A DNA stretch of 64,000 bases from Schlegelella aquatica. GTDB taxonomy: Bacteria > Pseudomonadota > Gammaproteobacteria > Burkholderiales > Burkholderiaceae_C. The position numbers were made by a program, and so were the translations under genes. Shown in pieces: positions 9,603 through 34,606 of this stretch; position 1 is the stretch's first letter; the number at the start of each line of letters is the position of its first letter. The stretch is from NCBI RefSeq assembly GCF_026013905.1, contig NZ_CP110257.1, positions 2,046,001-2,110,000 on the forward strand. The letters are read 5' to 3'. The notes beneath the pieces were generated by a model, which searched no databases, was not told where the DNA came from, and saw only the letters and a list, made by a program, of their open reading frames with translations.

Positions 9603-9893
9603 GGAATGTTTATTGCACGCGGCAAGAGTGACACCAGCGCCTGCGGACCCCGGCCACCCTTCGACGAGGGATACGACACTTGGCCACCGACCCCGCCAGG
9701 GCTGACCTCGAACGATGTCCACGCAGCTTGCCCACCATAGCCGCCGCTTGAGCCGGGGCCATTCGGCCCCATCTGGCATACGAGCGAGCGCGGCTCGTTC
9801 TTGCCTGCCCGACGCCTGCCGGCGACCCGCTTTGTCCGGGGGTCGCCCGCCGGTCGTGCCGGCCGCCAGAGCCCAGACCATCCGAGGAACCGC

Positions 9894-12179
9894 ATGACCG
9901 CGAAGAAGAGCGCCCCTGCCAAGACCGCCAAGGCGAACAAGGCCGTCGAGACCGAAGAGAAGAAGACGACCAAGGCCGTGGCGGCCAAGGAAGACAGGAC
10001 CAAGCCCGCTGCCAAGGCCGCCGCCGACAAGGCCGTCGACAAGGCGGCGAAGCCGGCCCGTGCCGCCAAGGCCGACGCCGACGAGGGCAAGGCCAAGGCC
10101 AAGCGTGGGCGCAAGCCGAAAGCCGCGACCACCAACAAGAAGGCCGCGGGCGAAGCCGACTTCGAGGACGAGGATTTCGCGGACATCGAGGCCGATCTCG
10201 AGGAAGCCGAGCCCGAGGTCGAAGTCGACGAGGCCGCCGAGGAAGACAAGCCCAAGGCCAAGCCCCTGCGAATGAAGGTCAGCCGCGCGAAGGAGCGCGC
10301 GCTGATGCGCGAGTTCGGCCTGGACGAGACCACCCTCACCGAAGATGAGGTCAACAAGCGCCGCCAGGAGCTCAAGACCCTCATCAAGATGGGCAAGACG
10401 CGGGGCTTCCTCACCCACGCGGAGATCAACGACCACCTGCCCGAGAAGCTGGCCGAGGCCGAGATCATGGACGCCATCGTGTCCATGCTCAACGACATGG
10501 GCATCGCCGTCTACGAGCAGGCGCCCGACGCGGCCACGCTGCTGATCTCCGGCGGCACGACGACCACCGCGACCGAGGAAGAGGCCGAGGAGGAAGCCGA
10601 AGCCGCACTGTCCACCGTCGATTCCGAGTTCGGCCGCACGACCGACCCGGTGCGCATGTACATGCGGGAGATGGGCTCGGTCGAGCTGCTGACCCGCGAG
10701 GGCGAGATCGAGATCGCCAAGCGCATCGAGAAGGGCCTGCAGGACATGATGCTGGCCATCTCGGCCTCGCCCACCACCATTGCCGAGATCCTGCAGATGG
10801 CCGAGCGCATCCGCTCCGGTGAGTTGCAGATCTCCGAGGTGGTGGACGGCTTCGTCTCCGAGGACGAGGCCGACGACTACGTGGCCGAGGAGGACTTCGA
10901 CGAGTTCGACGAGGAAGAGGACGACGACGGCAACGGCGGCAGCAAGGCCCTGACCAAGAAGCTCGAGGAGCTGAAGAACCAGGCGCTGCAGAAGTTCGAC
11001 CAGCTCGCCGTCCACTTCGACAAGATGCGCCGCGCCTACGAGAAGGACGGCTACAGGTCGCCGGCCTACAACAAGGCGCAGGAAGCGATCTCGCAGGAGC
11101 TCATGACCATCCGCTTCACGGTCAAGACGATCGAGAAGCTGTGCGACATCCTGCGCTCGCAGGTCGACGACGTGCGCCGCTACGAGCGCGAGATCCGCAA
11201 GATCGTCGTGGACAAGTGCGGCATGCCGCAGGAGCACTTCATCAAGGCCTTCCCGCCCAACGCTCTGAACCTGCAATGGGCCGAAAAGGAGGCCGCGGCC
11301 GGCAAGCCCTACAGCGAGGTGCTGCGCCGCAACCTGCCCGCCATCCAGGAGCTGCAGCAAAAGCTGGTCGACATCCAGGCGCGCGCCGTGGTGCCGCTCG
11401 AGGATCTCAAGCAGATCAACAAGCGCATGAACGAGGGCGAGGCGGCGTCGCGCGAGGCCAAGCGCGAGATGATCGAGGCCAACCTGCGCCTGGTGATCTC
11501 GATCGCGAAGAAGTACACCAACCGCGGCCTGCAGTTCCTCGACCTCATCCAGGAAGGCAACATCGGCCTGATGAAGGCGGTGGACAAGTTCGAGTACCGC
11601 CGCGGCTACAAGTTCTCGACGTATGCAACGTGGTGGATCCGCCAGGCCATCACGCGCTCGATCGCCGACCAGGCCCGCACGATCCGCATCCCGGTTCACA
11701 TGATCGAGACGATCAACAAGATGAACCGCATCTCGCGCCAGCACTTGCAGGAGTTCGGCTACGAGCCGGACGCGCCGACGCTGGCCGAGAAGATGGACAT
11801 GCCCGAGGACAAGGTCCGCAAGATCATGAAGATCGCCAAGGAGCCGATCTCCATGGAGACCCCGATCGGCGACGACGACGATTCGCACCTGGGCGATTTC
11901 ATCGAGGACACCAACAGCGTGGCACCGGTCGACGCCGCCATGCAGGCCGGTTTGCGCGAGGTGGTGAAGGAGATCCTCGACTCCCTGACCCCCCGCGAAG
12001 CGAAGGTGCTGCGTATGCGCTTCGGCATCGAGATGAGCACCGACCACACCCTGGAGGAAGTCGGCAAGCAGTTCGACGTGACGCGCGAGCGGATTCGCCA
12101 GATCGAAGCCAAGGCCATCCGCAAACTCAAGCACCCCAGCCGCTCGGACAAATTGCGCACGTATCTGGACAACCTTTGA
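9894..12179 (+). CDS. rpoD: RNA polymerase sigma factor RpoD (sigma-70)
   Basis: 761-aa primary sigma factor. ATG at 9894 follows GAGGAA. Residues 1-130 are a Lys/Ala-rich then acidic extension ahead of region 1.1, longer than in E. coli. Region 1.2 [16 protein letters not shown] near 250; non-conserved acidic insert about 325-350; region 2 with [18 protein letters not shown] near 570 (melting and -10 recognition); region 3 [16 protein letters not shown]; region 4.2 [20 protein letters not shown] near 725. The C terminus is KLRTYLDNL then TGA at 12177-12179. The last 33 nt are re-duplicated five times immediately downstream. Confidence 0.97.
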
Positions 12180-12180
12180 G

Positions 12181-12680
12181 GTTGGCCGGATACGGGGCTC
12201 GCGACAGCGAGCAGCCGCCGTGCGGCGACGCGATTTGCGGCGCAGCCACAAATTGCGCACGTATCTGGACAACCTTTGAGGTTGGCCGGATACGGGGCTC
12301 GCGACAGCGAGCAGCCGCCGTGCGGCGACGCGATTTGCGGCGCAGCCACAAATTGCGCACGTATCTGGACAACCTCTGAGGTTGGCCGGATACGGGGCTC
12401 GCGACAGCGAGCAGCCGCCGTGCGGCGACGCGATTTGCGGCGCAGCCACAAATTGCGCACGCATCTGGACAACCTTTGAGGTTGGCCGGATACGGGGCTC
12501 GCGACAGCGAGCAGCCGCCGTGCGGCGACGCGATTTGCGGCGCAGCCACAAATTGCGCACGCATCTGGACAACCTTTGAGGTTGGCCGGATACGGGGCTC
12601 GCGACAGCGGGCAGCCGCCGTGCGGCGACGCGATTTGCGGCGCAGCCACAAATTGCGCACGTATCTGGACGACCTCTGAC
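12181..12680 (+). repeat. Tandem array: five 100-bp units duplicating the rpoD 3' end
   Basis: Units start at 12181, 12281, 12381, 12481 and 12581, each exactly 100 bp. The last 33 nt of each unit (e.g. 12248-12280) match the last 33 nt of rpoD (12148-12180) and recode KLRTYLDNL plus stop. The 67-nt remainder contains hairpins GCTCGC/GCGAGC (12197-12212 in unit 1) and CGCCG/CGGCG (12216-12227). Units are nearly identical: unit 2 differs at 12376, units 3 and 4 at 12462 and 12562 (Tyr to His), while unit 5 has four changes (12610, 12671, 12676, 12680) and recodes KLRTYLDDL. The period is not a multiple of 3, so the array is not a protein repeat. Confidence 0.95.
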
Positions 12681-12684
12681 CTGA
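12681..12684. repeat. IS target-site duplication, left copy (CTGA)
   Basis: CTGA directly abuts the left inverted repeat and recurs at 13986-13989 directly after the right inverted repeat. A 4-bp duplication is normal for the IS5 group. Confidence 0.85.
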
Positions 12685-13985
12685 GGGCACTTCGCATAAC
12701 CCCATTTCCGAAGGCTGAACCGGCATGAGGGCGCTCGCGTCGTTCAGTTCGGGGTTCTCGGTGCCGCTCAGGCCCCGTCATCGCAGCCTTGGCGGGCGCC
12801 CGAGGCCCTGCAAAACTGCGTTTGCAGGCTCTGCGGGCGCACCTCTCCCTTCATCGCGCACACCCGCACGGGTCATGGCGCACCAGCCAGACCAGCCGCT
12901 TGGCGTTGTACGCCGCGCACTTCAGCAGGATCGCCAGTTCGTTTCTCGCCAGCGTCATCGCCCGCACGCACTTGCCGCCCAACTGCTCGAGGCCGGCGAA
13001 CACATGTTCGCCTCTGGCGCGGACGCGGTTGATCGCCTTGTTGCGCGCGTCCAGTCGCACGCGCCGCTCCTGCCCGGGCTTGGCACGCCGCGCGATGCCG
13101 TCGCGCAGCCCGTGGGCCTGCAGCAACTGGCGGTTGGTCTGCGCGTCGTAGCCTCGGTCGGCCAGCAGCCGCGCGCCGGTGTTGGCGCGGTCCAGCACCT
13201 CCTTGAGCGTCTGGCCGTCGTCGGCGTTGGCCGGCGTGACCTTCGCCCGGCGGATCAGCTTGTAGCGCGCGTCCGCGTTGGCGTGCACCTTGTAGCCGTA
13301 GAAGCTCTTGCCGTGCTTCTTGGTCCAGCGCGCGTCGCGGTCGGTGTGCTGCAGCCGCTTGGCATTCCAGCCCTCGGGCCTGCGGCCTTCGTTGAGCGCT
13401 TCGCGCTCGTCCTTGTTCGCCTGGGTGAGCGGTGCCTGCACGATGCTGGCATCCACGATCTGCCCGCCGCGCGGGATGTAGCCGTGCTGCTGCAACTGCA
13501 GGCTCACCGCCTCGAAGATAGCGCGGCCGCCCAGACCGCCTTGGGCCAAGCGCTGCTTGAAACTCCACAGCGTGCGCGCATCGGGGATGTGCAGTGCTCC
13601 GTCCAGGCGGCAGAAGTGCTGGAAGCTCATGCGGTCCAGCACCTGGTACTCGCAGTCCTCGTCGCTGAGGTTGTACAGCGACTGGATGAACAGCAGCCGC
13701 ACCATCACCTCGGTGGGGTACGGCGGGCGCCCGCCTTTGCTACGGTCAGCGCGAGGGCAGGCGGTGTCGACCCGGGCGGCAATGGCCGCGAAGTCGATCA
13801 GTTCGTCCATTGCTGCCAGGTTGGCGATGAAGCCGCCGAGCTTGGCTTGGCGCTGGTCCTGCACGAACAGGTCAGCGCCAGGCTGGTGACGCCACAAAGA
13901 CGAGGGCTTGATGCGCGGGGTGATCATGGGCGACATCATGCCGGCTCACGGGCTGCAAGGGGGAGGGAGGTTTCGAGAAGTGCCC
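12685..13985 (-). mobile_element. Complete IS5-family insertion sequence, 1301 bp
   Basis: Bounded by terminal inverted repeats: left end from 12685 reads GGGCACTTCGCATAACCCC, right end reading inward from 13985 is GGGCACTTCTCGAAACCTC (15 of 19 identical). Flanked by the CTGA direct repeat. It encodes one transposase on the minus strand (12851-13939). The left 165 bp are non-coding and hold a hairpin CTGCAAA/TTTGCAG (12808-12827), possibly the transposase terminator. It sits between the rpoD repeat array and the terminator at 14002-14038. No second copy is present in the window. Confidence 0.93.
12851..13939 (-). CDS. IS5-family transposase
   Basis: 362-aa DDE transposase, apparently intact. 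The N-terminal half has the helix-turn-helix-bearing region DRSKGGRPPYPTEVMVRLLF common to IS5 and IS1182-like enzymes. Catalytic acidic residues are likely Asp in QIVDASIV (near residue 170), Asp in LLADRGYD (near 270) and Glu in FAGLEQ (near 325); SFYGYKVHANAD is the typical YKxH-type segment. In-frame ATGs at 13939, 13936 and 13927 are possible starts. It is confined within the inverted repeats and shares no operon with chromosomal genes. Confidence 0.93.
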   Translation of the reverse strand: MMSPMITPRIKPSSLWRHQPGADLFVQDQRQAKLGGFIANLAAMDELIDFAAIAARVDTACPRADRSKGGRPPYPTEVMVRLLFIQSLYNLSDEDCEYQVLDRMSFQHFCRLDGALHIPDARTLWSFKQRLAQGGLGGRAIFEAVSLQLQQHGYIPRGGQIVDASIVQAPLTQANKDEREALNEGRRPEGWNAKRLQHTDRDARWTKKHGKSFYGYKVHANADARYKLIRRAKVTPANADDGQTLKEVLDRANTGARLLADRGYDAQTNRQLLQAHGLRDGIARRAKPGQERRVRLDARNKAINRVRARGEHVFAGLEQLGGKCVRAMTLARNELAILLKCAAYNAKRLVWLVRHDPCGCAR

Positions 13986-18900: not shown

Positions 18901-19942
18901 GGTGCGCGACTACGCCGACCACATGCTGCAAGCCGGCCAGCACCTGCTCGCGCTCATCAACGATGTGCTGGACCTGCAGCGCGTGGAGGCGGGGCAATTG
19001 CCGATGACGCCCGGGGCCGTGAGTCTGCGTCACTCGCTGACGCAGGTCATCGACCTGCTCAAGCCCGCCGCAGAGTCGGCCCTGGTGCATTTCCGCCTGG
19101 AGGTGCCGGCCGCGGTTCACGTTTGGGCCGATGCACAGCGGCTGCGGCAGGTGCTGATCAACATCGTGTCCAACGCCGTGAAGTACAACCGGCCGGGCGG
19201 CGATGTGACGCTCACGCTCGAGCGGCCTCGCGAGGACCCGGCTCGCGGCGAGCGCGTGGTGCTGCGCGTGGAGGACAACGGCGAGGGACTCGACGCGGGG
19301 CAGCTCGCACGGCTGTTCCAGCCGTTCGAGCGGCTCGGCCGCGAGACGTCCTCGATCGAGGGCACCGGCCTCGGACTCGTCATCGCCAAGCGCCTGCTCC
19401 AGGAAATGGAAGGATCTATTGCCGTGACCAGCACGCCCGGACAGGGCACGCAAGTGCGCATCGAATTGCCGGCAGCCAGCGCCCAGACCCAGCTCGAGCC
19501 TCCCGCCCGGCCGAGCGGCGAGGTCGTGGCCGAGCTCGGCGCTCCCCGGCCCCTGAGGATGTTGTACGTGGAGGACAACCCGATCAACGCCCTGCTCTTC
19601 GAGGAGGCGATGAAGCTGGCCGGCCACGTGGAACTGCGCATCGCCGAGGACGGGCCGCGCGCCCTCGAGATCGTGCGCGAGTGGTTGCCCGACATCCTGG
19701 TGCTCGACGCGCACTTGCCGGGCATGGATGGCATCCAGGTGCTCAAGGCCTTGCGCAACCACGAGGGTCTGGCCGAGGCACCGGCGTTCATGTGCTCGGC
19801 CGACGCCATGCCCGAAGACATCCAGCGAGCCCTCGATGCCGGCTTCCAGGGCTATTGGACGAAGCCGATCGAAGTCTCGCGCGTGCTGGCCGAAGTGCGC
19901 CGCATCGCCGCGCGCAGCTCGCTGCCGCAATCCTCTCTTTGA
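15956..19942 (+). CDS. Hybrid sensor histidine kinase with GAF, multiple PAS including a LOV domain, and receiver domain
   Basis: 1328-aa soluble hybrid kinase with no membrane segment. Order: GAF (about 12-160); PAS near 176-288, 301-415 and 432-542; a LOV domain at about 548-665; PAS near 677-795 and 809-925; HisKA with FLSRMSHEMRTPLNAM (phospho-acceptor His955); HATPase with NIVSNAVKYN, EDNGEGL and GTGLGLVIAKRL; and a receiver domain (about 1198-1320) with LVLDAHLPGMDG (Asp1251). The LOV core is canonical: TGYSREEVLGRNCRILQG with photoreactive Cys597, NYRKDG, FINEVHVAPV and HFIGVQTDIT supply the FMN contacts. Start ATG 15956 is chosen because the GAF domain begins at once; an upstream in-frame ATG at 15836 exists. 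Output partner unknown. Confidence 0.93.
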   Translation: MSTAAPDAVAKRTDLLRELRILDTSPEPCFDSAVALAQQLTGFPLAWLALVDGERMWLKASVGLRRQELPCAGGWCTPVLASPGPLAVESLRAYDVTPHTAVIWEAEGVDGYAAVPIRVEGRALGLLAVADHVPRLAPAAALAGLEHVARLVGELLEGRLKAQRSRLQEARVRTASRAGSDWLWETDAEGRVTWASETIETHIGLRPQEEIGRKPSEILLRREDPEHDASWQAYLAARARREPFHNLVADRITPRGRVTVSISGIPVFDSAGRFRGYRGATRIITHELEAQARARHAQQLLQHAIESMSASVAITDERGLVVHANRTWRDRNGRYLDPANPSWEAALRRMVEAGEFPDAVGREAEFLAQWAAAEHQATPREVRRRDQWLLVTSQRLEHGGAIHVGVDITARKQSELELAYRQAELRASEARMAAVLQALPDLWFVMDAQGRYLRGGDTARHLLAAPFEQVMGRSVHEVLPSDTAQRIEAALRAALDTGAVQRVEYELTPMGSERVRTFEGRFVRMTHDQVLLIVRDLTELRSMERDLHIMLRAIEAEASLPISVVDAEAPDQPVVYVNPAFERLTGYSREEVLGRNCRILQGLDRDQGALEPLRAALREGRSTTVVLRNYRKDGTRFINEVHVAPVHAADGRITHFIGVQTDITERSVAADRLRLSEELYRSVALSISDGLMVVTTGSYVVAVNPAACRILDMAMEDLVMSPGLELLDESLEPLPAEDHPVTRTLESGEPTTERVYGVKLSDGRVRWLHLGVQPLRIAPHDRPLSAVVTFRDITRQREAEQALAVSEQRWKFALEGSGNGVWDWDVASDRVFYSTRWKEILGYLDHELGSSVEVWSSRVHPDDRAAVLERLQAHLRGESAVYQSEHRIRHREGHHLWVSERGKAVLRDTDGRALRIVGTLADITPQKEAEQALRDKQAAELASRSKTEFLSRMSHEMRTPLNAMIGFSQLLKLGARGPGAEQVRDYADHMLQAGQHLLALINDVLDLQRVEAGQLPMTPGAVSLRHSLTQVIDLLKPAAESALVHFRLEVPAAVHVWADAQRLRQVLINIVSNAVKYNRPGGDVTLTLERPREDPARGERVVLRVEDNGEGLDAGQLARLFQPFERLGRETSSIEGTGLGLVIAKRLLQEMEGSIAVTSTPGQGTQVRIELPAASAQTQLEPPARPSGEVVAELGAPRPLRMLYVEDNPINALLFEEAMKLAGHVELRIAEDGPRALEIVREWLPDILVLDAHLPGMDGIQVLKALRNHEGLAEAPAFMCSADAMPEDIQRALDAGFQGYWTKPIEVSRVLAEVRRIAARSSLPQSSL

Positions 19943-20066
19943 GCACGGAATCGCCGTCCCCCCGGGAGCCCCTGTGAGGCGACCCGGCGGGGCGGCCCCG
20001 CCGCAGCGCCGGGCCACGGCCTGCCCGACAATCGCGCTACCTCCACGAACCGCCGCTTCTTCCTCG

Positions 20067-21158
20067 ATGAGCTTCCGCCCCGAACCGCCGTACCGCCACG
20101 CAGACCCCGCACGCACCGGGGTGCTGCTGTGCAACCTCGGCACGCCCGACGCGCCCACGGCGCCCGCGTTGCGCCGCTATCTGGCGGAGTTCCTCGGCGA
20201 TCCCCGGGTCGTGGAGATCCCGCGTGCGGTGTGGTGGCCGATCCTGCACGGGATCATCCTGCGCACGCGGCCGGCCCGCTCGGCCGCGAAGTACGCCAGC
20301 ATCTGGACCCCCGAAGGTTCACCCCTTCGCGTCTGGACGCAGAAGCAGGCCAAGATGCTGCAAGGCTATCTCGGCGAGCGCGGTCACCAGGTGCTGGTGC
20401 ACCATGCGATGCGCTATGGCCAGCCATCGCTCGCGCAGGGGCTCGATGCACTCAAAGCGCAAGGCGCGACGCGTGTGCTCGTGCTGCCGCTCTACCCGCA
20501 GTACTCCGGCACCACCACCGCCAGCGTCGTCGACGCGGTCGCCGCCTGGAGCCGTGGCGTGCGCCGTCTGCCCGAGCTGCGCTTCGTGATGCGATTCCAC
20601 GACCACCCGCTCTACATCGAAGCCCTCGCCCGGCGCGTCCTGGCACACTGGGCGACGCGCGGACGCCCGGACAAGCTGCTGCTCAGCTTCCACGGCGTGC
20701 CCAAGCGGACGCTGACCCTGGGCGACCCCTACCACTGCGAGTGCCACAAGACGGCCCGCTTGCTCGCCGAGCGGCTCGGCATCGGGCCGGACCGCTGCAT
20801 CGTCACCTTCCAAAGCCGGTTCGGCCGAGCCGAATGGCTGCAACCCTACACCGAGCCCACGCTGCGCGAGCTGGCCCGCCGGGGCGTGGCGCGGGTCGAC
20901 GTCATGTGTCCGGGCTTCGTCAGCGACTGCATCGAGACCCTCGAGGAGATCGCCATCGAGGCGCGCGACGCCTTCCTCGAGTCCGGCGGCCGGGAGTTCC
21001 ATTACATCCCCTGCCTGAACGACCAGCACGAATGGCTCGTCGCTCTCACCGCCATCGTGGAGCAGCACCTGGCGGGATGGCCCACGCGCCAGACCGATGA
21101 CGACGAGCAATGCGCGCGCCGGCGCGAACGCGCACGGGCGCTGGGAGCGACCGACTAG
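20067..21158 (+). CDS. hemH: Ferrochelatase
   Basis: 363-aa enzyme that inserts Fe2+ into protoporphyrin IX, the last step of heme synthesis. GVLLCNLGTPDAP near residue 18, EGSPLRVWTQKQ near 86, LPLYPQYSGTTTAS near 140, the catalytic His in LLSFHGVPKR near 210, and CPGFVSDCIETLEEI with the conserved Glu near 288. ATG 20067 gives the usual N terminus just before the first beta strand. It lies 124 bp downstream of the hybrid kinase; the gap is GC-rich without a clear promoter. A C-terminal Arg-rich tail (CARRRERARALG) extends slightly beyond the core. Confidence 0.96.
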   Translation: MSFRPEPPYRHADPARTGVLLCNLGTPDAPTAPALRRYLAEFLGDPRVVEIPRAVWWPILHGIILRTRPARSAAKYASIWTPEGSPLRVWTQKQAKMLQGYLGERGHQVLVHHAMRYGQPSLAQGLDALKAQGATRVLVLPLYPQYSGTTTASVVDAVAAWSRGVRRLPELRFVMRFHDHPLYIEALARRVLAHWATRGRPDKLLLSFHGVPKRTLTLGDPYHCECHKTARLLAERLGIGPDRCIVTFQSRFGRAEWLQPYTEPTLRELARRGVARVDVMCPGFVSDCIETLEEIAIEARDAFLESGGREFHYIPCLNDQHEWLVALTAIVEQHLAGWPTRQTDDDEQCARRRERARALGATD

Positions 21159-27169: not shown

Positions 27170-27170
27170 G

Positions 27171-27328
27171 GCCCGGCGCTCGGCCGCCCGAAGCCGGGCC
27201 GACACCCCCCTGGGGGGTGGGGCGCACGCCCCGGGGGCAAACATACACGGCCCGGCGCTCGGCCGCCCGAAGCCGGGCCGACACCCCCGTGGGGGGTGGG
27301 GCGCACGCCCCGGGGGCAAACATACGCG
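27171..27328. repeat. Tandem duplication of a 79-bp GC-rich hairpin unit
   Basis: Units 27171-27249 and 27250-27328 are almost identical (difference CCCCCCTGG versus CCCCCGTGG, and TACACG versus TACGCG at the end). Each contains a GGCCCGGC/GCCGGGCC-type stem, an ACCCCC/GGGGGT stem and GGGGCGCACGCCCC. A further stem CGGCCCG/CGGGCCG follows at about 27328-27346. It occupies the convergent gap between hslR and the DUF5666 gene, so bidirectional termination is plausible, although U-tracts are poor. Confidence 0.8.
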
Positions 27329-27355
27329 GCCCGTCCACCGGGCCGCTTCAAGCCT

Positions 27356-34393: not shown

Positions 34394-34426
34394 ACGCGAG
34401 CGCGGGAACGCTGCGCCCCCGAAAGC

Positions 34427-34567
34427 CTCGCTCCCCCTCGCTCCCCCTCGCCCCCCTCGCCCCCCTCGCCCCCCTCGTCCCCCTCGTCCCCCTCGTCCCC
34501 CTCGTCCCCCTCGTCCCCCTCGTCCCCCTCGTCCCCCTCGTCCCCCTCGTCCCCCTCGTCCCCCTCG
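34427..34567. repeat. Microsatellite of 9-bp units (TCCCCCTCG)
   Basis: Ten perfect TCCCCCTCG units at 34478-34567, preceded by three CCCCCCTCG units (34451-34477) and two 10-bp variants CTCCCCCTCG (34431-34450). It fills most of the 213-bp gap between the convergent PAP2 and radical SAM genes. Since 9 is a multiple of 3, frames stay open across it, but no start or codon bias supports translation. Prone to slippage, so copy number likely varies. Confidence 0.95.
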
Positions 34568-34606
34568 TCCACGGGCGCTTCCCCTGCCGCGTCTCCCGCT
34601 CGTGGC

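What the first reader, a model, noticed from the sequence alone, without database searches (positions are those of the whole stretch)
12148..12680. Exact 100-bp tandem array that regenerates the RpoD C terminus five times
Immediately after the rpoD stop, a 100-bp unit is repeated five times head to tail. Each unit ends with the same 33 nt that end rpoD, so each recreates [13 protein letters not shown]. The most distal copy is the most diverged (KLRTYLDDL) and is followed by what looks like the original rpoD terminator. This polarity is what serial insertion at a gene 3' end would give: each new element supplies a fresh end and pushes the old one outward, as integrative elements do at tRNA or guaA ends. 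The 67-nt remainder is hairpin-rich and encodes nothing evident. Slippage amplification after one insertion is the competing model. An array here could also structure the rpoD mRNA 3' end.
Basis: partly seen in the sequence, partly recalled or inferred. Interest (0 to 1): 0.78.

Follow-up and report, generated by a model that had tools for sequence, protein, structure and literature searches.

The report
Hairpin cassettes replacing gene ends
The repeat after rpoD is one example of what looks like a family of tiny non-coding DNA cassettes that sit on the ends of essential genes, each bringing its own copy of the gene's last codons plus folded hairpins, and that seem to pass between species of one bacterial family.

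Summary
The array is real: five 100-bp units plus a terminal end, 12148-12679, in a one-contig genome. It is not isolated. The rpoD unit or a remnant occurs in 31 of 299 family genomes. Cassettes with like junctions and a conserved folded core sit at the ends of acs, proB, metK, argF, nrdA, ftsW, aceE and sucC; six genes of this genome carry one. Anatomy: T (gene end, from a GA|NAA junction to the stop), T' (inverted copy), core, then T again. Each rpoD insert pairs with its own gene end (28 of 30 against the next copy); compensatory change is strong; G-U exceeds A-C, pointing to the sense strand. Unit and end are uncoupled from the rest of rpoD. The near-identical copies here probably arose by local duplication. 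How cassettes move is unknown. No Rfam, phage, plasmid or viral match and nothing in ten literature searches.

The parts
9801..12179 (+). rpoD ORF (sigma-70); its last 32 nt are the first copy of T
   Evidence: ORF list; Pfam sigma-70 regions 1.1, 1.2, ner, 2, 3, 4
12148..12247 (+). unit 1 (T + T' arms + H2 + H3 + minimal core)
   Evidence: TRF; covariance model hit 12148-12247
12248..12347 (+). unit 2
12348..12447 (+). unit 3
12448..12547 (+). unit 4
12548..12647 (+). unit 5
12648..12679 (+). outermost regenerated rpoD end (KLRTYLDDL-stop), most diverged
12149..12158 (+). closing stem, 5' strand (rpoD codons), unit 1
   Evidence: fold; covarying helix 1
12160..12194 (+). H1: rpoD end and its inverted copy, loop at the stop codon, unit 1
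   Evidence: fold; helices 2 and 3
12197..12212 (+). H2 hairpin, unit 1
   Evidence: fold; helix 4
12214..12226 (+). H3 hairpin, unit 1
   Evidence: fold; helices 5 and 6
12227..12237 (+). closing stem, 3' strand (complement of rpoD codons), unit 1
   Evidence: fold; helix 1
12239..12248 (+). proposed minimal core GGC-GCA-GCC-A, ending at the junction A|CAA with the next copy
   Evidence: sequence; inference from core consensus and junction table

Best explanation
The array is the rpoD-resident member of a family of about 64-160-bp non-coding cassettes that replace gene ends. A unit is T - T' - core. T is a copy of the gene's last codons, starting at an N-A-A triplet after GA and ending at the stop; T' is its inverted copy; the core folds into a stalk with two hairpins and ends in CA. 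Shown: the anatomy, like junctions at unrelated genes, conserved fold, self-matching arms at rpoD, uncoupling from the host gene, mixed arrays. Inferred: a unit inserts just upstream of the resident NAA, takes over as the coding end and pushes the old end outward, where it decays; near-identical copies then multiply by unequal exchange between repeats. That rpoD units and the core-bearing units are one family rests on shared junctions, like anatomy and a proposed minimal core, not on overall sequence. Not shown: the enzyme, whether the moving form is RNA, single-stranded DNA or a piece of chromosome, and any benefit to the host. I favour movement as a folded sense-strand molecule.
For: rpoD unit or remnant in 31 of 299 family genomes, 20 of 141 genera; all 30 loci fetched of those lie at an rpoD end. 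25 stretches in a scan of 84,980 species: 22 show rpoD upstream, 3 begin inside the array at a contig end. Mixed arrays L054, L094, L102. Own-end pairing, 44 distinct units: double-centred mean -7.1 kcal/mol against permutation sd 0.56, 0 of 20000; where own and next end differ (30 units) own is better in 28, equal in 1, worse in 1. Covariation, 50 distinct units: 93.4% of cells paired against 77.4% shuffled, 269 double-changed cells against 71, 0 of 500. G-U to A-C 99:34, shuffled ratio 1.48, maximum 1.73 of 1000. Mantel, 28 carriers: distant against near rpoD r 0.50; against the last 16 nt before the unit r 0.36 (p 0.0016); against the 32-nt end r 0.07 (p 0.19); against the unit r 0.02 (p 0.42). 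Of 46 outer copies 15 differ from the active end only synonymously, 13 of them by 3-7 codons (62 codons in all); a random single change is synonymous with chance 0.234. Inverted repeat at the stop: 35 carriers median 11.3, 60 zero-copy 4.4, background inside rpoD 4.1, p 8e-11. Host junction GA|NAA and right junction CA|NAA at rpoD, nrdA, proB, metK, argF, acs, ftsW (with for proB and metK). Core fold 99.7% paired in 15 cores.
Against: For 34 carriers against their nearest zero-copy relative the outer end was closer in 8, equal in 14, and the active end closer in 12; many zero-copy ends hold remnants. In the clearest empty-site case (L064) the flank fits the outer copy but the sisters' ends fit the active copy (L109, L111). 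Synonymous divergence is already raised in the five codons before the unit, also between zero-copy ends, so the left boundary is not proven sharp. Fifteen of 46 outer copies equal the active end, and the near-identical copies here fit plain duplication. No enzyme or intermediate was found. T-T' identity could be kept by template switching rather than selection. At aceE only a short remnant of the direct repeat is seen by eye. In 4 of 29 cores, and in argF L349 and L350, the bases N and N' do not match. At tRNA-Ser, at rlmD and between genes the T-T' arms are short or do not involve a gene end. The aligned counts lean on a model built from eight units; G-U counts come from related sequences.
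Confidence: 0.68

Rival explanations
1. Spread by ordinary homologous recombination. The cassette is a piece of 3' untranslated DNA; rpoD ends are swapped between species by transformation, and unequal exchange in the 32-nt repeat builds arrays. No dedicated mobility system exists.
For: All 30 fetched rpoD-type loci lie at rpoD; rpoD is well conserved and gives homology on the left; the last 16 nt before the unit correlate with the active end (r 0.285, p 0.002); divergence rises before the unit.
Against: L052 and the zero-copy relative L168 agree at 59 of the last 60 upstream positions, differ at 7 of 32 in the active end and at only 3 in the outer end, which needs two exchanges within a few bases; their downstream flanks, however, match in neither register. 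It does not explain how the same core came to unrelated genes with like junctions or the dispersed copies in G230 (29 pattern hits).
Confidence: 0.27
2. Purely local amplification. A vertically inherited hairpin region after rpoD was duplicated by slippage; nothing was inserted.
For: The units of the window are 98% alike; 15 of 46 outer copies equal the active end; variable copy number.
Against: Mixed arrays; unit unrelated to host phylogeny; 60 of 95 ends without a repeated end, at least 42 of them not shown to hold any unit; same architecture at other genes.
Confidence: 0.08
3. Host-serving 3' untranslated RNA: hairpin clusters that end transcription or protect the mRNA, kept by selection on the transcript, with mobility incidental.
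For: Sense-strand bias of G-U pairs, compensatory change, and T' starting at or just after the stop in nine genes read by eye. Hairpin clusters after stop codons have been studied as terminators (PMC8355165, start of abstract seen in the listing).
Against: Patchy presence (31 of 299) and decay of many outer copies. By eye, a T-rich terminator still follows many arrays.
Confidence: 0.3
4. Assembly artefact.
For: Arrays break draft contigs (L092, L093, L104 begin inside one).
Against: The genome is one contig and the pattern recurs in many assemblies.
Confidence: 0.01

Closest known systems
Integrative elements that target gene or tRNA 3' ends (phages, ICEs, genomic islands; recalled)
   Same: Insertion supplies a new gene end and displaces the old one outward; serial arrays.
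   Different: Units are about 64-160 bp, too small for an integrase gene, and carry an inverted copy of the gene end.
REP / BIME palindromes of the GTAG and CGTC superfamilies (Di Nocera 2013, PMC3733652: outline with abstract and one passage seen)
   Same: Short palindromic repeats, mostly downstream of coding regions, many in pairs that can fold together.
   Different: No GTAG or CGTC tag at the stem foot of the core alignment; arms are made of target-gene sequence; a gene end is regenerated; the same genes are used across genera.
MITEs and other non-autonomous insertion sequences (recalled)
   Same: Small, non-coding, inverted repeats, several copies per genome.
   Different: The inverted repeats derive from the target gene and differ at each target; no parent transposase is known (none was sought).
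Integron attC sites and cassettes (recalled)
   Same: Arrays growing from a fixed proximal site; recombination site defined by fold more than by sequence.
   Different: No cassette gene, no attC core motif in the consensus, anchored in coding ends; IntI was not searched for.
Template-switch mutations that create perfect hairpins (recalled)
   Same: Would explain T' as an inverted copy of adjacent DNA and its upkeep.
   Different: Does not explain the shared core or its presence at many genes.

Membership tests
Integrative element at a gene 3' end | regenerates the target gene's end | tested here: met
   (15 of 46 outer rpoD copies identical and 15 synonymous; 16 altered)
Integrative element at a gene 3' end | encodes an integrase/recombinase | tested here: not met
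   unit spacing is 64-125 bp at rpoD, up to 160 bp at argF, too short for such a gene
GTAG/CGTC REP | GTAG or CGTC tag at the stem foot | tested here: not met
   inspection of alignment A4, 15 cores: stem foot TTN-C(A/G)GC / GC(C/T)A-NAA
GTAG/CGTC REP | associated RAYT transposase | not tested
   no search for RAYT was made
MITE | terminal inverted repeats shared with a parent insertion sequence | tested here: inconclusive
   inverted repeats exist but come from the target gene; no parent element was searched for
Integron cassette (attC) | attC core GTTRRRY/RYYYAAC | tested here: not met
   inspection of consensus A4; motif recalled
Integron cassette (attC) | IntI integrase in the genome | not tested
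   not searched
Described RNA family (Rfam 15) | match above gathering score | tested here: not met
   window 11900-12900, six acs loci, and one or two loci each of proB, aceE, metK, ftsW, argF, tRNA-Ser: only tRNA in L276 passed
Phage, plasmid or viral element | presence in those collections | tested here: not met
   no match for the rpoD unit or one core in plasmids and phages; no exact pattern match in viral contigs

The most novel reading that the evidence does not exclude
A new class of mobile element that moves as a folded sense-strand molecule (RNA or single-stranded DNA), is targeted by pairing with a gene's own last codons at GA|NAA, and lives on essential genes because each insertion replaces the coding end without a scar. 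The inverted copy of the gene end is made during insertion at a new gene, by fold-back at the stop codon.
Probability: 0.28. Interest if true: 0.95.

Novelty: categorically new. Interest (0 to 1): 0.86.

Why it matters
It would show how a piece of non-coding DNA can colonise essential genes again and again without harm, by carrying the gene's own ending. It makes a testable system out of a chance repeat: six genes in one genome, many species, and a frozen series of old gene ends that may record the order of arrival. It also warns that the last codons of rpoD, and perhaps of other marker genes in this bacterial group, can have a history different from the rest of the gene, and that such arrays break draft assemblies.

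Tried and rejected
Plain slippage was rejected as a full account (mixed arrays). A general excess of cloverleafs at gene ends of this genome was tested and not found: stop inside the first arm in 11 of 366 stop windows against 17 of 732 random windows. The scan for repeated gene ends in 660,928 bases also listed two 60-61-bp rows in L195, set aside unexamined because their fold is weak. Sampling 800 kb of G066 and G001 gave one row, in the acs region of G001, which failed the coding filter. A larger cloverleaf scan timed out. Comparison of ends with the nearest zero-copy relative was mixed. The antisense strand as the folded strand was considered: the plus strand is more stable in 34 of 44 units. 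The closing stem alone shows weaker G-U bias (25:14; 13:15 by another alignment). An earlier Mantel test on 34 carriers with 264 nt upstream gave r -0.07. Rows dropped: 154 loci gave 105 distinct rpoD ends, of which 10 failed the end pattern and 95 were counted; the Mantel test used the 28 carriers with 1 kb upstream; 29 cores were recovered by a pattern that requires TTN and NAA, from 70 hairpins. L271 lies inside a coding stretch without the rest of the core and is probably chance. Literature: ten searches listed no description that I recognised; titles and abstract starts were seen, and only PMC3733652 was opened (outline with abstract; one passage). The library lacks most subscription papers, so absence in print is not established. 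No autonomous partner or enzyme was sought systematically.

Full report
WHAT IS THERE. The window holds rpoD (9801-12179) followed by five 100-bp units, the first starting inside the gene, and a last 32-nt copy of the rpoD end (12148-12679). The genome is one contig of 3.35 Mb and the array occurs at one place in it. The host is very probably a Caldimonas: G006, of the same genus, has the same sequence at this locus as a Caldimonas manganoxidans record (L085). Regenerated ends 3, 4 and 5 no longer encode the exact C terminus.

THE UNIT IS A FOLDED WHOLE. Unit 1 folds as a cloverleaf (-55.1 kcal/mol, z -5.4). The closing stem joins rpoD codons to the far end of the insert, the first arm joins the last rpoD codons to DNA after the stop, with the stop at the loop, and two further arms are made by the insert alone. 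In 50 distinct units from many genera, 93.4% of cells pair against 77.4% in shuffles; 24 of 37 pairs show changes on both sides; 269 double-changed cells against 71 (0 of 500 shuffles). That alignment was fitted to a model built from eight units, so it leans towards the structure. An unaligned test agrees: over 44 distinct units, inserts fold better with their own rpoD end than with others (double-centred mean -7.1 kcal/mol, permutation sd 0.56, 0 of 20000). Where own and next copy differ (30 units), own is better in 28, equal in 1, worse in 1, the last being unit 5 of this window. Mispairs are G-U more than A-C (99:34; shuffled ratio 1.48, maximum 1.73 in 1000), which favours the coding-sense strand as the folded form.

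HOW FAR IT GOES AT rpoD. A model search found the unit or a remnant in 31 of 299 family genomes and 20 of 141 genera, this genome included; all 30 loci fetched lie at an rpoD end. A pattern for a regenerated end found 25 stretches among 84,980 species: Roseateles, Paucibacter, Mitsuaria, Aquabacterium, Piscinibacter, Rubrivivax, Methylibium, Rhizobacter, Caldimonas and less fully named records; 22 show rpoD upstream and 3 begin inside the array at a contig end. Of 95 countable distinct rpoD ends, 60 have no repeated end, 28 one, 5 two, 1 three, and this window five. At least 18 of the 60 still match the unit model, so they are not all empty. These 95 were gathered largely by searching for carriers and their genera and are not a random sample. 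An inverted repeat at the stop has a median score of 11.3 in 35 carriers, 4.4 in the 60, and 4.1 inside rpoD; the nine of the 60 that score 9 or more all match the unit model.

SERIAL REPLACEMENT. Three facts point to insertion of complete units that take over the coding end. First, mixed arrays: L054, L094 and L102 hold units of different sequence type side by side, each pairing best with its own end rather than the next. Second, outer copies: of 46, 15 equal the active end, 16 carry amino-acid or stop changes, and 15 differ only synonymously, 13 of these by three to seven codons, 62 codons in all. With a 0.234 chance that a random change is synonymous, these look like ends that were once in use. 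Third, uncoupling: in 28 carriers, distant and near parts of rpoD agree (r 0.50) and the last 16 nt before the unit still follow (r 0.36, p 0.0016), but the 32-nt end (r 0.07, p 0.19) and the unit (r 0.02, p 0.42) do not. A site without a unit exists in close relatives of G326: G328 and G332 have none and their flank matches the DNA after the outer copy of G326, while G329 has a different two-unit array.

RESULTS AGAINST. For 34 carriers compared with the nearest zero-copy end, the outer end was closer in 8, equal in 14, and the active end closer in 12. In the G326 case the sisters' ends resemble the active, not the outer, copy. Third-position divergence is raised in the five codons before the unit in carrier pairs (0.317) and in zero-copy pairs (0.337). 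The 16 nt before the unit correlate with the active end (r 0.285, p 0.002). Zero-copy ends often hold remnants and may have had insertions of their own, but homologous recombination is not excluded. In this genome the copies are so alike that local duplication is the simpler source of most of them.

OTHER GENES. In 20 stretches of this genome plus the window and 25 rpoD loci (660,928 bases in 46 stretches) a scan for repeated gene ends found, beside rpoD, a case at acs, acetate-CoA ligase: repeat of 125 bp, cloverleaf with the first arm around the gene end. Of 30 acs ends that I read by eye, this genome's included, 10 show the element with a repeated end, three of them with three or more copies of the core (L199, L202, L208). 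The acs units carry a tail hairpin, CTCATATCGCGCAGCGATGTG. That hairpin, with up to one mismatch, occurs in 75 of 299 family genomes and 46 of 141 genera; the reversed control pattern had one hit. Reading 30 of those loci and 20 more regions shows it after proB, metK, argF, aceE, ftsW, sucC, rlmD and at an alaS-like gene (NCBIfam; the last below its cut-off), and also in tRNA-Ser genes, in a lepA-like region (name recalled, not tested) and between genes. At rlmD and the alaS-like gene the arms do not follow the T-to-stop rule. Arrays: proB with cores 89 bp apart, four in G006, and 91 bp apart in this genome; metK repeats of 137 bp in G120; argF 3 x 160 bp in G012; nrdA 3 x 101 bp in this genome, where one of the repeated ends has lost the stop.

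COMMON ANATOMY. Fifteen cores align as TTN-CGGCGCAGGC-TCACATCGCGCAGCGATGTGA-AGGC(hairpin)GCC-GCCGNAGCCA-N'AA (consensus). Ends pair: 99.7% of cells in 21 pairs, 25 double-changed cells against 5.6 in shuffles. In 25 of 29 distinct cores the N before the core and the N' after it are complementary, as expected if both belong to copies of the same gene end, inverted before and direct after; L349 and L350 (argF), read later, do not agree. At rpoD, nrdA, proB, metK, ftsW, argF and acs the gene is entered at GA|NAA and the repeated end begins at CA|NAA; sucC enters at CA|AAA and the repeat begins CA|AGA. The repeated end matches 75 of 75 nt at rpoD, 74 of 75 at nrdA, 68 to 75 of 75 in three acs loci, 54 of 56 at argF in this genome, 33 of 44 at metK in this genome and 28 of 34 at ftsW (L284); the longest figures include tandem DNA. 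The automatic table gave only 3-8 nt at proB L281, L311 and L314, and misplaced the junction at L315, L317, L280 and aceE; these I read by eye. In nine genes (rpoD, acs, proB, metK, aceE, ftsW, sucC, nrdA, argF) T' starts at or near the stop codon, by eye. The rpoD link TTTGCGGCGCAGCC|ACAA looks like both ends of this core with its two hairpins missing; this is my inference for placing rpoD units in the same family. A proB unit folds at -59.6 kcal/mol (z -7.5), an nrdA unit at -56.6 (z -2.7).

THIS GENOME. Core model hits at genome positions 531302 and 531393 (proB), 2396863 (argF), 2564910 (metK), 2696700, 2696801 and 2696902 (nrdA), seven in all; core in 14 of 40 genomes searched, this one included. 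With acs and rpoD, six genes carry a cassette. The counts are minima, since only top candidates were scored.

KNOWN OR NEW. No Rfam family passes its cut-off except a tRNA. No match in plasmids, phages or viral contigs. A search for core strings in papers found none, and the nine other searches listed nothing that I recognised as it. REP elements are nearest in general kind, but as described in the abstract and passage seen they lack the target-derived arms and the gene-end copy (PMC3733652). I therefore call the anatomy a new category, with the reservation that the mobilising enzyme may turn out to be a known one.

HOW IT MAY WORK. Best supported: a complete unit enters just before the resident NAA and becomes the coding end. 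Favoured but unproven: the moving form is the folded sense strand, because unit borders coincide with the fold and G-U pairs prevail. The inverted copy at a new gene needs a fold-back step near the stop codon; selection that spares the coding end would leave only such cases. Host benefit, for example termination or mRNA protection, is possible and untested. On re-reading I lowered the main confidence slightly (0.70 to 0.68) and the boldest reading (0.30 to 0.28), because zero-copy ends often hold units and because N and N' disagree at argF.

Noticed in passing
window 27170-27333: A 79-bp hairpin-rich unit repeated twice right after the stop of another reading frame (period 79, 2.1 copies); it does not repeat the gene end.
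   Followed up: partly
window 34426-34570: A 9-bp unit (CCTCGTCCC) repeated about 16 times.
   Followed up: no
window 12851-13939: Transposase gene (DDE_Tnp_1, DUF772) on the minus strand next to the array; the cyclase-like gene that follows rpoD in many relatives (name recalled, not tested) was not noticed here, and ferrochelatase lies further on (19728-21158).
   Followed up: partly
L276, L286, L310, L357: The element sits in the anticodon-loop part of a tRNA-Ser-like copy, with what looks like an intact tRNA-Ser downstream (tRNA confirmed by Rfam in L276 only); in L310 the hairpin repeats at 131 bp.
   Followed up: partly
G230 (loci L298-L308): 29 hits of the core hairpin in one 6.6-Mb genome, several between genes with short arms CAACC-GAA-GGTTG: a good place to look for an active enzyme.
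   Followed up: partly
L092, L093, L104, L102, G235 contigs C216 and C277: Draft contigs begin or end inside rpoD arrays, so copy numbers in drafts are likely underestimates.
   Followed up: no
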